The position numbers and the translations under genes were made by a program. The notes below the pieces were generated by a model, which was given only the letters and a program-made list of their open reading frames with translations, did not search any database and was not told the origin of the DNA. A stretch of 64,000 bases of DNA from a candidate division WOR-3 bacterium (GTDB taxonomy: Bacteria > Hydrothermota > Hydrothermia > Hydrothermales > JAJRUZ01), in the NCBI GenBank assembly GCA_039803925.1, contig JBDRZL010000008.1, positions 1 through 64,000 on the forward strand. Direction: 5' to 3'. This document shows, piece by piece, positions 18,472-24,025 of the stretch; positions within the stretch are counted from its first letter, which is position 1; each line of letters opens with the position of its first letter.

Positions 18472-19938
18472 ATGAGATACTTTCATATTGGGATTGATAA
18501 ACTTACAATTGATGAACTTTTTTTAATTGGAAAAGGTAAGAAAGTTAAAATAGAGCAGGATGTTTTAAAGAAAGTTAAAGAAAATAGGGGAGTTCTTGAG
18601 AATATAGTAAATAAAGGTGAAACTGTATACGGAGTTAATACAGGTGTGGGAAGACTTGCTGATAAAATATTAAAATTTGATGAATTGAATGAATTACAGA
18701 GATATATAGTAATATCACACTCTTCAGGCTATGGAGAACCTCTTAAAAAGGAAATTGTTAGAATTGCTATGTTTTTAAGGCTTTACATGCTATCAAAGGC
18801 TTATTCAGGAGTAAGACCTGAAGTTCTTAATAAACTAGAGGAATTTTTAAATAAGGATATTGTTCCTTATGTTCCTGCCTTTGGTTCACTTGGAGCAAGT
18901 GGAGATCTTATTCCTCTTTCTCATATAGCTCTTGCCCTTACAGGTAGGGGAATGGTTATTCATGAGGGCAGAATTTTACCCACATATCTTGTTTTAAAAT
19001 CAACGAATACATTACCTCTTGAGCTCCAGTATAAAGAGGGTCTTGCTCTTATTAATGGAACTCAGGTTTCCCTTGCTTTTTTAGTTTATCTAATTAAAAT
19101 TCTTGAAAATATACTAAATATATACGATAGAGCATATTTATTTTCTTTTGTGGCAGTGGATGGAAATTCAGATATATTTAATGAGAACCTTATAGTTTTA
19201 AGAAATTCTAAAAATGAGAAAAAAATAGCTAAATATTACAGGGATTTACTTAAGGATTATAAATTTGAAAAGAAGAAAAAGCTTATTCAGGATCCTTACT
19301 CTTTCAGATGTATGCCTCAGGTAAGGGGAACATGTGAGGAAATTTTTGAGTTCTGTAAAAGAGTAATAGAAGAGGAAATTGAGTGTGTAAGTGATAATCC
19401 TTTGGTTATAGGTGATAAAGTTATTTCAGGTGGAAACTTTATTGGAATCCGACTTTCCTTTGTTTCTGAGAATTTAAAAAAAATAATAGCAGTTTTATCA
19501 AATATTTCAGAAAGAAGGATTAATCATTTGATGGGAAGTGAGGTAATTGATATGCCTAAATTTCTTTCAAAGGAACCCGGTAAAAAAACAGGTCTAATGA
19601 TATTACATAATCTTGTTGTATCTCTTTTATCTTATATAAAAACTTTAACCTTTCCGGATCTTTCTGATTCAATACCAACTTCACAAAATCAGGAGGATTA
19701 TGTCCCCATGACAATGAATTCCTGTTTAAAACTTTTTGATATGGTTGATAAGTTTAAAGTAATAACTTTTTCAGAACTTTATGCAGGAGTAAGGGCATGT
19801 TTGCTATTAAATAAAAAATTACCCTTAGAACTTGATAGTTTTTTATCTTCAAATTTTAAGGATTTAAAGATATTTCTGGAAGATTTAGAACCATGGGAGG
19901 TTATTAAAAGGATAAAAAATGTTTTAGATTTTAATTAA
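18472..19938 (+). CDS. hutH: Histidine ammonia-lyase (aromatic amino acid lyase family)
   Basis: The family deaminates histidine to urocanate using the autocatalytic MIO group made from Ala-Ser-Gly. The motif GSLGASGDLIPLSHIAL is present at about residues 137-153, with the catalytic tyrosine in YGVNTGVG (about 53-60). The 488 residues are near the usual ~500. No hutU, hutI or hutG is nearby, so substrate choice is not confirmed; a tyrosine or phenylalanine lyase or an aminomutase is possible. It ends the sucD operon and converges with the ExeA-like gene, overlapping it by four bases. Confidence 0.8.
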   Translation: MRYFHIGIDKLTIDELFLIGKGKKVKIEQDVLKKVKENRGVLENIVNKGETVYGVNTGVGRLADKILKFDELNELQRYIVISHSSGYGEPLKKEIVRIAMFLRLYMLSKAYSGVRPEVLNKLEEFLNKDIVPYVPAFGSLGASGDLIPLSHIALALTGRGMVIHEGRILPTYLVLKSTNTLPLELQYKEGLALINGTQVSLAFLVYLIKILENILNIYDRAYLFSFVAVDGNSDIFNENLIVLRNSKNEKKIAKYYRDLLKDYKFEKKKKLIQDPYSFRCMPQVRGTCEEIFEFCKRVIEEEIECVSDNPLVIGDKVISGGNFIGIRLSFVSENLKKIIAVLSNISERRINHLMGSEVIDMPKFLSKEPGKKTGLMILHNLVVSLLSYIKTLTFPDLSDSIPTSQNQEDYVPMTMNSCLKLFDMVDKFKVITFSELYAGVRACLLLNKKLPLELDSFLSSNFKDLKIFLEDLEPWEVIKRIKNVLDFN

Positions 19939-21544: not shown

Positions 21545-21920
21545 AATCTAACATAATACAAAAAGCAAGGGCATATTTTCCATCATGTGTAATTGATAGG
21601 GAAAATTTTTTATTTTTGAATTTTTCCTTAGTCTTTCCGTGAAGTTTAACTTCAGGTTCAAAGCCAGGTTCTCTTATTATTTCTATGTTTTTAAAATAAA
21701 CACCTTTTCCAAAACCCGTTCCCAATGCTTTCATTACTGCTTCTTTTGCTGCAAAACGACCTGCAAGGTGTGGAAAAGGATTTTTTCTTTTAAGGGCATA
21801 TTCTATTTCTCTTTCTGTGAAAATTTTTTTTAGAAATCTTTCTCCAAACCTTTCATAGGCTTTTATAATTCTTTCAATTTCTATTAAATCTACACCTATT
21901 TTTATATTATTCAATTTCAT
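21534..21920 (-). CDS. acpS: Holo-[acyl-carrier-protein] synthase
   Basis: AcpS attaches the 4'-phosphopantetheine arm of CoA to the acyl carrier protein. The 128 residues match the family. The magnesium/CoA motif GVDLIEIERI lies at about residues 9-18, the second motif FPHLAGRFAAKEAVMKALG at about 49-67, and SITHDGKYALAF near the C-terminus. It overlaps the HAD gene upstream by 14 bases and the TPR gene downstream by 11, so all are probably on one transcript. Confidence 0.93.
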   Translation of the reverse strand: MKLNNIKIGVDLIEIERIIKAYERFGERFLKKIFTEREIEYALKRKNPFPHLAGRFAAKEAVMKALGTGFGKGVYFKNIEIIREPGFEPEVKLHGKTKEKFKNKKFSLSITHDGKYALAFCIMLDCEE

Positions 21921-22593
21921 TTAATTTTTTAACTATATCAAGAAGTTCAAGTGGGTCTTCAATTTCATAGTGGGCACCTGAGTTTTTTGTTCCAAAGGTA
22001 TCACCATATTTTGCAAAAACCGTTATCATTCCCACTTCCTTTGCTCCATATATATCTCTTTCAGCCCAATCTCCTACCATTATGCTTTCATTGGGTTTAA
22101 CATTAAGTTTTTTTAAAACTGCAAGAAAAGGTTCTGGTTTTGGTTTCCTTATTCCTGTATCATCCCAGGTTACAACAGCGTTAAAAATCGTATGAAGTCC
22201 AACTTCTGCAAGTCTTGTCCAGGCTTGGAGTCTCGGAGCATCAGAAATTACACCCAGTTTTAATCCCATTCTTAAAAGTTCAGTTAATACAAATCTTATG
22301 TGGGGATAAAGTATCATATTTGCTGTTTTTGCTTTCCTGTAAGCAACGATTCCTGCTGCAAGTATTTTATAATCAACGTATCCGAGTTCAATTTCTAAGA
22401 ATCTATCAAAAATTTTTTGATCCTCAATATGAGTTTCTGCATAAAGTTTGAAAATTTTTTCAATTGCTGCCTCTTTTTTTACTTTTAAACCAGCATCAAT
22501 CATTGCCTCAACTGCCATTTCAACTGATTCTCTTTTCATTCTCATAAAATCTAAAAGTGTATTATCCAGGTCAAAGATGCAGGCTTTTATCAT
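21907..22593 (-). CDS. HAD-superfamily hydrolase
   Basis: The 228-residue protein shows the four HAD motifs: DLDNTLLD with the nucleophile Asp (about 8-15), ISDAPRL for motif II (about 115-121), the lysine in GIRKPKPEPF (about 147-156) and VGDWAERDIYGAKEVG (about 172-187). A helical cap lies between motifs I and II, as in C1-type phosphatases. The substrate is unknown. It directly follows the tRNA-Arg gene, and the T-stem of that tRNA ends 20 nt before its ATG, with no Shine-Dalgarno sequence. Confidence 0.85.
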   Translation of the reverse strand: MIKACIFDLDNTLLDFMRMKRESVEMAVEAMIDAGLKVKKEAAIEKIFKLYAETHIEDQKIFDRFLEIELGYVDYKILAAGIVAYRKAKTANMILYPHIRFVLTELLRMGLKLGVISDAPRLQAWTRLAEVGLHTIFNAVVTWDDTGIRKPKPEPFLAVLKKLNVKPNESIMVGDWAERDIYGAKEVGMITVFAKYGDTFGTKNSGAHYEIEDPLELLDIVKKLNEIE

Positions 22594-22605
22594 TTTAAAG
22601 CTTTA

Positions 22606-22679
22606 CGCGCCCGGTGGGATTTGAACCCACAGCCTCCGCCTCCGCAGGGCGACGCTCTTTCCAGTTGAGCTACGGGCGC
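22606..22679 (-). tRNA. tRNA-Arg, anticodon GCG
   Basis: A complete cloverleaf can be read: acceptor GCGCCCG/CGGGCGC, D-stem GCTC/GAGC, anticodon stem TCGCC/GGCGG around loop CTGCGGA, and T-arm GTGGG-TTCAAAT-CCCAC. The anticodon GCG reads the arginine codons CGC and CGU. Most bacteria use ACG, edited to ICG by TadA; the loop here matches that type except for G34. CCA is not encoded, so the CCA-adding enzyme at 57337 would be needed. It is 13 bases upstream of the HAD gene on the same strand. Confidence 0.93.
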
Positions 22680-22714: not shown

Positions 22715-24025
22715 TCAAAGTAAGGGTAAATAATTTTTTAGTTCATAATCCGTAACCTGAATCCTGTAATCTTCCCATTCCTTTTTTTTATTTCTAATAA
22801 ATTTTGTAAATACCTCTTCCCCGAGTGCACTTTTAACAAGTTCACTTTTTTCCATTTCAAGAATTGCAGAATAAAGAGAATCCGGTAAGGAATCAATTCC
22901 ATATTTTCTTTTTACTTCTTCAGGCATTGCATAAATATCTTCCTCAATGGGTTCTCTTAAAGGATATTTTTCAATTACCCCTTTTAAACCGGCTCTTAAT
23001 ATGACACTAAAAGCAAGATAAGGATTACAGGCAGGGTCAGGAGCTCTGTATTCAATTCTGCAAGATTTTGGCTTATAGGGTTTAAAAGCAGGAACTCTCA
23101 CTAAAGCTGACCTATTTTTTCTACCCCATGATAAATAAACAGGTGCTTCATACCCAACTACAAGTCTTTTGTAAGAATTTACCCATTGATTTGTAACTGC
23201 TGTTATTTCCCTTGCATGTTTTAAAAGACCAGCAATAAATCCCTTTGCTATTTCTGATAAATTAAATTCATCATTTTCAGAATAAAAAGCATTTTCTTCT
23301 CCCTTAAATAAAGATATATGGCAGTGAAAACCACTCCCATTTATTCCAAAGACTGGTTTTGGCATAAAGGTAGCATATATTCCGTATTTTCTCGCTATAT
23401 GCTTTATTATAACCTTTGAAACCTGAACTATATCAGCCATTTTGAGTGCTTTTTGATATCTGAAATCAATTTCATGCTGGGAAAAAGCAACTTCATGGTG
23501 AGTTGCTTCAATCATAATCCCCATTTTTCTTAAAGTAAGTAAAGTCTCTTTTCTTGCATTGACAGCTTTTTCAATAGGCAAAATATCAAAATATCCACCT
23601 CTATCAAGAATTTCTACTTCTTTATCACTTTTAAAATAAAAATATTCAAGTTCAGGACCAACATAAAAGTCAAATCCCAACTCTTTTGCAAAATTTAAAT
23701 TTCTCTTCAAAACATGTCTTGGACATGATTCGTAAAAAGAACCATCAGGATATAAAATATCACATATGAAAACAACAGAAGGATTCCCATCAAAGTTTTC
23801 AAGGAAAAAGTAGGAATTTAAATCAGGTTTTGCTATTAAATCGGATTCCTCTATTCTTACAAAACCCTCAATAGAAGAACCATCAAACCCTATTCCCTCT
23901 TCAAGAGCCCTTTCAAGTTCCTCTCTTGTTATATTGAATCCCTTAACATTTCCGAGAATGTCTGTAAACCATAGACGAATTACCTCTATCCCCCTTGAGT
24001 CAATTTCTTTTATAATTTCATTCAT
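22715..24025 (-). CDS. glnA: Glutamine synthetase, type I
   Basis: Glutamine synthetase joins glutamate and ammonia using ATP. The 436 residues show the class I N-terminus (WFTDILGNVKGF, about 19-30), the latch-like GFDGSSIEGF (about 47-56), the metal and glutamate motifs GPELEYFYF (about 122-130) and GINGSGFHCHISLF (about 225-238), and KPYKPKSCRIEYRAPDP near 310. The adenylylation-site motif NLYDLP of the beta subtype is replaced by EDIYAMPEE, so control by adenylylation is unlikely. It is divergent from the DUF4920-like gene; both leaders hold a T-arm-like hairpin. Confidence 0.95.
   Translation of the reverse strand: MNEIIKEIDSRGIEVIRLWFTDILGNVKGFNITREELERALEEGIGFDGSSIEGFVRIEESDLIAKPDLNSYFFLENFDGNPSVVFICDILYPDGSFYESCPRHVLKRNLNFAKELGFDFYVGPELEYFYFKSDKEVEILDRGGYFDILPIEKAVNARKETLLTLRKMGIMIEATHHEVAFSQHEIDFRYQKALKMADIVQVSKVIIKHIARKYGIYATFMPKPVFGINGSGFHCHISLFKGEENAFYSENDEFNLSEIAKGFIAGLLKHAREITAVTNQWVNSYKRLVVGYEAPVYLSWGRKNRSALVRVPAFKPYKPKSCRIEYRAPDPACNPYLAFSVILRAGLKGVIEKYPLREPIEEDIYAMPEEVKRKYGIDSLPDSLYSAILEMEKSELVKSALGEEVFTKFIRNKKKEWEDYRIQVTDYELKNYLPLL

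What the first reader, a model, noticed from the sequence alone, without database searches (positions are those of the whole stretch)
22606..22679. tRNA-Arg with G34 (anticodon GCG) instead of ACG/inosine
The anticodon loop reads CTGCGGA. In most bacteria the CGN decoder is tRNA-Arg(ACG) with A34 edited to inosine by TadA. A GCG anticodon reads only CGC and CGU without editing, the arrangement used by archaea and by bacteria that lost TadA. This suggests altered arginine decoding, perhaps without inosine.
Basis: partly seen in the sequence, partly recalled or inferred. Interest (0 to 1): 0.5.

Follow-up and report, generated by a model that had tools for sequence, protein, structure and literature searches.

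The report
Bacterial arginine decoding without inosine
This bacterium from candidate division WOR-3, and its whole order as far as sampled, reads the CGN arginine codons with three unedited tRNAs instead of one inosine-edited tRNA, and has lost the editing enzyme TadA, which is a clean but not unprecedented change in how the genetic code is read.

Summary
ARAGORN and Rfam find a good tRNA-Arg(GCG) at exactly 22606-22679, on the minus strand. The window's genome (1.84 Mb, 96.45% complete) has 43 tRNAs: Arg GCG, UCG, CCG, UCU and CCU, no ACG, and no A34 anticodon at all. Its only cytidine/adenosine-deaminase-family genes are RibD and cytidine deaminase; no TadA was found. The organism is a candidate division WOR-3 bacterium. 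The trait belongs to a lineage: GCG is present in 5 of 5 genomes of the order and 0 of 35 others of the class, while TadA is in 0 of 5 against 30 of 35 and ACG in 0 of 5 against 31 of 35. In many relatives tRNA-Arg(ACG) sits just upstream of tadA (22 of 54), so enzyme and substrate could be lost together. The CGN codons are nearly unused (30 of 766 Arg codons in the window). TadA loss with G34 plus U34 decoding is published for some Mollicutes, and I saw GCG without TadA in three other phyla. Real and correctly read, but a new member of a known kind.

The parts
22606..22679 (-). tRNA-Arg(GCG) gene, G34, predicted reader of CGC and CGU
   Evidence: ARAGORN; Rfam RF00005 68.9 bits; geometry
21907..22593 (-). 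HAD-family hydrolase gene whose ATG lies 12 bases after the tRNA 3' end; conserved neighbour in the four family members (context, no decoding role implied)
   Evidence: Pfam PF13419/PF00702; junction in G000, G028, G029, G030
22715..24025 (-). glnA, glutamine synthetase, upstream neighbour on the same strand (context)
   Evidence: TIGR00653 504.5 bits; same neighbour in G030, not in G028 or G027

Best explanation
The gene is a functional tRNA-Arg with G34 that replaced the usual inosine tRNA-Arg(ICG). In this order of WOR-3 the four CGN codons are read without editing: GCG reads CGC and CGU (G-U wobble), UCG reads CGA (and probably CGG), CCG reads CGG. Shown here: the tRNA genes, the absence of tRNA-Arg(ACG) and of a detectable tadA in all five genomes of the order, and their presence in most of the sister families. 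Inferred: (1) the ancestor had the tRNA-Arg(ACG)-tadA pair still seen in relatives; (2) CGN codons became rare as AGA/AGG took over; (3) a UCG tRNA was gained, making I34 dispensable for CGA; (4) ACG was replaced by GCG, by an A34-to-G34 change or recruitment of a paralogue, and tadA was lost, in unknown order and perhaps in one deletion. Consequence inferred: no TadA-made inosine at wobble position 34, and no TadA-dependent mRNA editing.
For: Full tRNA set without any A34. PF14437 and PF00383 find only RibD and tetrameric cytidine deaminase, identified by NCBIfam. Class survey of 40 genomes: order 5/5 GCG, 0/5 ACG, 0/5 TadA, 5/5 UCG; rest of class 0/35 GCG, 31/35 ACG, 30/35 TadA, 3/35 UCG (tabulated in 57). 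ACG and TadA co-occur in the rest of the class: both 30, ACG alone 1 (G021, 84% complete), TadA alone 0, neither 4. tRNA-Arg(ACG) within 150 bases upstream of tadA on the same strand in 22 of 54 phylum genomes with both listed. CGN are 30 of 766 Arg codons in the window. Outside the phylum, 3 of 3 genomes with GCG gave no TadA, and 5 of 6 with ACG gave one. A published parallel in Mollicutes runs tadA loss, UCG gain, GCG.
Against: No RNA data: unedited decoding is inferred from genes. The genome is 96.45% complete and lacks tRNA-Tyr, Gly(UCC) and Thr(UGU), so it has gaps; the argument rests on five genomes agreeing. For G027, G029 and G030 the best TadA-model matches (E 5.8e-10, 3.8e-12, 2.3e-10) are taken as RibD by strength only; their reading frames were not inspected. 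CGN rarity is not sufficient: G031 has as few (15 of 525) yet keeps ACG and TadA. The A34-to-G34 step is not resolved: the tRNA tree is poorly supported and splits the GCG genes in two groups. CCG was not found in G028 by the pattern used. The counts do not correct for shared ancestry.
Confidence: 0.93

Rival explanations
1. Assembly artefact: tRNA-Arg(ACG) and tadA exist but lie together in an assembly gap, and GCG is an extra tRNA.
For: In relatives the two genes are neighbours, so one gap can hide both; G004 lacks tadA only because its contig ends inside the ACG gene. Three tRNAs are missing from G000.
Against: 5 of 5 genomes of the order lack both while 30 of 35 class genomes have TadA (Fisher p = 3.8e-4, not corrected for relatedness). 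GCG appears only there, and UCG in 5 of 5 there against 3 of 35 elsewhere; a hidden ICG would make both redundant.
Confidence: 0.03
2. The GCG gene is a non-functional or regulatory tRNA-like remnant.
For: CGN codons are very rare (30 of 766 Arg codons), so selection on it is weak.
Against: Intact cloverleaf, about 66 to 73 bits in the five genomes, body conserved while the anticodon stem varied with pairing kept. No other gene found reads CGC/CGU by standard wobble.
Confidence: 0.02
3. A different, unrelated deaminase makes inosine in this lineage.
For: Only the TadA/cytidine-deaminase fold was searched.
Against: There is no A34 tRNA left to edit: 0 of 43 in G000, 0 of 39 read in G029.
Confidence: 0.01
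4. The GCG tRNA came by horizontal transfer, for example from archaea, rather than from the bacterial ACG/CCG tRNAs.
For: The GCG+UCG+CCG set equals the archaeal set; the gene sits in different neighbourhoods in the two families (f1 and f2).
Against: The acceptor stem GCGCCCG/CGGGCGC is the one of most sister ACG and many CCG tRNAs; best identities outside the anticodon are to sister ACG/CCG tRNAs, 0.80-0.86. Archaeal tRNAs were not included in that comparison.
Confidence: 0.07

Closest known systems
CGN decoding in tadA-less Mollicutes of the Pneumoniae group, items 31-36 of Yokobori et al. 2013, PMC3711424 (section 16 read)
   Same: tadA lost, UCG tRNA gained, G34 tRNA-Arg in place of A34; low-GC genomes
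   Different: Mollicutes lost the CCG tRNA first and have reduced genomes; here CCG is kept in at least 4 of 5 genomes, genomes are 1.8-2.3 Mb, and the tRNA set has nearly one tRNA per readable anticodon
Archaeal arginine decoding (G34/U34/C34 set, no TadA; PMC8007984 passages, say that archaea lack all ANN anticodons)
   Same: Same three CGN tRNAs and no A34
   Different: Bacterial tRNA bodies; evidently a secondary loss, since most sisters in the class keep ACG and TadA
Standard bacterial ICG decoding by TadA
   Same: CCG tRNA retained; present in most sister families
   Different: No ACG, no TadA; two extra tRNAs (GCG, UCG)
B. subtilis yaaJ (tadA) deletion, PMC10454642 (passages)
   Same: Shows that a bacterium can live without I34
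   Different: There the ACG tRNA remains unedited; here it is gone and replaced

Membership tests
TadA-less G34/U34 arginine decoding (Mollicutes type) | No tadA gene | tested here: met
   in own genome; no TadA-strength match in 5 of 5 genomes of the order
TadA-less G34/U34 arginine decoding (Mollicutes type) | No tRNA-Arg(ACG) | tested here: met
   0 of 43; 0 of 5 in the order
TadA-less G34/U34 arginine decoding (Mollicutes type) | tRNA-Arg(GCG) and tRNA-Arg(UCG) present | tested here: met
   5 of 5 for both
TadA-less G34/U34 arginine decoding (Mollicutes type) | tRNA-Arg(CCG) lost | tested here: not met
   CCG present in G000, G027 and G030, G029; hence not filed as the Mollicutes subtype, only as the same kind of decoding
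Archaeal-type CGN set | GCG, UCG and CCG tRNAs with no A34 anticodon | tested here: met
Archaeal-type CGN set | Archaeal ancestry of the tRNA gene | not tested
   Only sister bacterial tRNAs compared
Standard bacterial ICG decoding | tRNA-Arg(ACG) plus TadA | tested here: not met
Inosine-free decoding | No inosine in tRNA anticodons, measured | not testable with these tools
   Needs RNA from the organism

The most novel reading that the evidence does not exclude
In WOR-3 and other phyla tRNA-Arg(ACG) and tadA travel as a linked editing-enzyme/substrate cassette, so that inosine decoding is gained or lost as one unit. Once a UCG tRNA exists and CGN codons are nearly abandoned, the cassette is excised in one event, and this has happened many times in free-living bacteria with ordinary genome sizes, leaving them with an archaeal-like code-reading set and no inosine RNA editing.
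Probability: 0.2. Interest if true: 0.5.

Novelty: new member of a known kind. Interest (0 to 1): 0.33.

Why it matters
TadA is generally regarded as nearly universal and often essential in bacteria. An order of ordinary-sized bacteria without it shows a second, apparently non-parasitic route to inosine-free decoding, with sister families that keep the earlier states (ACG+TadA, and ACG+UCG together in G032, G043 and G054). It gives a natural set for testing how a tRNA-editing enzyme becomes dispensable, and a lineage in which TadA-dependent mRNA editing should be absent.

Tried and rejected
Considered and rejected: (a) cytidine deaminase at C1:147360 as a TadA: NCBIfam assigns it to tetrameric cytidine deaminase, 140.7 bits. 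(b) RibD as a TadA: RibD model 280.4 bits against TadA 38.3, cut-off 150. (c) Absence of GCG in G029: the pattern missed it because the D arm reads AGCTTA; ARAGORN found it in L216. (d) ACG without TadA in G004: its contig ends inside the ACG gene. (e) Divergent TadA of families f6/f7 as another enzyme: in the five checked (G031, G033, G036, G037, G042) HAE and PCxxC are kept, so they were counted as TadA. (f) TadA-model matches in the GCG-bearing Armatimonadetes and Chloroflexota genomes: by eye they read as a frame-broken RibD and a dCMP-deaminase-like protein (no family search was run on them).

Led nowhere: a tRNA tree for the origin of GCG (weak support); G086 and G088, single-contig genomes that show neither ACG nor TadA, remain unexplained. 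CGA usage compared between the order and six other genomes gave no clean contrast, because GC content differs.

Literature: searches gave no paper on inosine or TadA loss in WOR-3 (none with all terms). Seen: PMC3711424 passages and section 16; passages of PMC10454642, PMC4041420 and PMC8007984; other listed papers by search listing only. Two papers on bacterial tRNA modification and inosine evolution (recalled, Mol Biol Evol 2018 and 2019) and PMC6103674 are not held, so prior mention there cannot be excluded.

Full report
Observation. ARAGORN finds a single tRNA in the window: tRNA-Arg(GCG) at 22606-22679, minus strand. Rfam scores it 68.9 bits, gathering score 29. All four stems pair and the anticodon loop is CTGCGGA. 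It lies between glnA (22715-24025, TIGR00653) and a HAD-family hydrolase (21907-22593), all on the minus strand.

The genome. The window is part of a 1,836,213-base assembly in 29 contigs, 96.45% complete. The nearest named relative by GlnA is 'candidate division WOR-3 bacterium isolate Dive96_bin10.253' (86% identity), which by identical match coordinates and sequences is the same genome as G028, a member of the window's family. The genome has 43 tRNAs. Arginine: GCG, UCG, CCG, UCU, CCU. No anticodon starts with A. The only anticodons missing from a full set are Tyr(GUA), Gly(UCC) and Thr(UGU), all three of which are present in the same-genus genome G029, so they are probably in an assembly gap.

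TadA. PF14437 gives one match and PF00383 two. One gene is RibD (TIGR00326, 280.4 bits), the other a tetrameric cytidine deaminase (TIGR01354, 140.7 bits); the TadA model scores RibD at only 38.3 bits against a cut-off of 150.

Distribution. I searched 147 genomes of the phylum with the TadA model, with an ACG tRNA-Arg pattern and with a GCG pattern, and the 40 genomes of the class with an NCG pattern. GCG was matched in 4 of 147, all in the order of the window (5 genomes, two families); the fifth, G029, has it too but with AGCTTA in the D arm. Within the class: order GCG 5/5, ACG 0/5, TadA 0/5, UCG 5/5; rest GCG 0/35, ACG 31/35, TadA 30/35, UCG 3/35 (tabulated). TadA was counted at E of about 1e-23 or better. 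In the rest of the class ACG and TadA occur together in 30, ACG alone in 1 (G021), neither in 4. The patterns are strict and miss variants, as G029 shows; a looser pattern on selected genomes of other families shows that ACG is common there as well, so the 56 of 147 is a lower bound.

Linkage. In 22 of 54 phylum genomes with both features listed, tRNA-Arg(ACG) lies less than 150 bases upstream of tadA on the same strand; two more lie within 1000 bases. Distances are from the end of the pattern match to the start of the TadA model match. Similar closeness is seen in loci of an Omnitrophota and a Latescibacteria genome. G004 seems to lack tadA only because its contig ends inside the ACG gene. 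Thus loss of one locus could remove enzyme and substrate together. I infer this; the ancestral site in the window's order was not located.

Origin of the GCG gene. Outside the anticodon the five GCG tRNAs are most like each other (mean identity 0.85-0.89), and next like ACG and CCG tRNAs of sister families (best 0.80-0.86), with the acceptor stem that most of those share. The tree is too weak to choose between an A34-to-G34 change and recruitment from CCG. In G000 and G030 the anticodon stem is TCGCC/GGCGG, in G027, G028 and G029 it is CAGGG/CCCTG; the former resembles the CCG tRNA of G027 (TCGCC/GGCGA), which hints at exchange between paralogues.

Codon use. In mechanical ORFs of at least 150 aa, CGN are 30 of 766 Arg codons in the window (13 CGU, 3 CGC, 10 CGA, 4 CGG); the CGN share is 2.9-8.4% in the five genomes of the order and 2.9-30.1% in six genomes of other families. 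Rare CGN use fits a relaxed need for I34 but is not sufficient, since G031 (2.9%) keeps ACG and TadA.

Beyond the phylum. Of 18 genomes reached through named loci (18 of the 80 loci were given; one is G028 again), GCG was matched in G028 and in three others: Armatimonadetes (L083; GCG, CCG and UCG, no ACG matched), Chloroflexota (L070) and Spirochaetes (L079), confirmed by ARAGORN in L295-L297. None gave a TadA (the matches in L279 and L280 read by eye as RibD and a dCMP-deaminase-like protein). Of 6 genomes with an ACG match, 5 gave TadA. So the association repeats in other phyla, on small numbers and incomplete genomes.

Known work. Yokobori et al. 2013 (PMC3711424, section 16 read) describe tadA loss, gain of UCG and replacement of A34 by G34 in Mycoplasma pulmonis and relatives. 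A 2021 review (PMC8007984, passages) states that bacteria generally have ArgACG, that ArgGCG is missing, and that ACG goes with tadA. The present case is the same kind of change in ordinary-sized WOR-3 genomes that keep CCG. The library searches listed in Tried and rejected found no report for WOR-3, but key papers are not held.

Verdict. The likely mechanism is unedited three-tRNA decoding of CGN after an order-level loss of tRNA-Arg(ACG) and TadA. It is a clear new member of a known kind, of moderate interest.

Noticed in passing
L236, L237, L238, L245, L246, L268, L270 (and table): tRNA-Arg(ACG), the substrate of TadA, lies directly upstream of tadA in many WOR-3 genomes (22 of 54 within 150 bases) and close by in one Omnitrophota and one Latescibacteria locus.
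   Followed up: partly
window 22594-22606; G028, G029, G030: The HAD hydrolase ATG lies about 12-26 bases after the 3' end of tRNA-Arg(GCG) in four genomes; after tRNA processing its mRNA would be almost leaderless.
   Followed up: partly
window 22606-22679 against L187, L188, L216: Anticodon arm of the GCG tRNA differs completely between G000/G030 and G027/G028/G029 while the T stem is the same; the G000 form resembles a CCG tRNA arm, as if exchanged between paralogues.
   Followed up: partly
L295, L296, L297 (genomes of L083, L079, L070): tRNA-Arg(GCG) without detectable TadA in genomes named Armatimonadetes, Spirochaetes and Chloroflexota: probable independent losses.
   Followed up: partly
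G086 and G088: Two single-contig genomes of family f22 show neither tRNA-Arg(ACG) nor TadA, nor GCG, in these searches, while G087 of the same genus has ACG and TadA close together.
   Followed up: no
L231-L235 (families f6, f7): TadA of these families is divergent (about 85-125 bits against 130 or more in most others) and not next to the ACG tRNA, though catalytic motifs are kept in the five checked.
   Followed up: partly
window 18472-19938, +: Aromatic amino acid lyase family gene (PF00221, 441 bits), histidine ammonia-lyase-like, convergent with the operon downstream of the tRNA.
   Followed up: no
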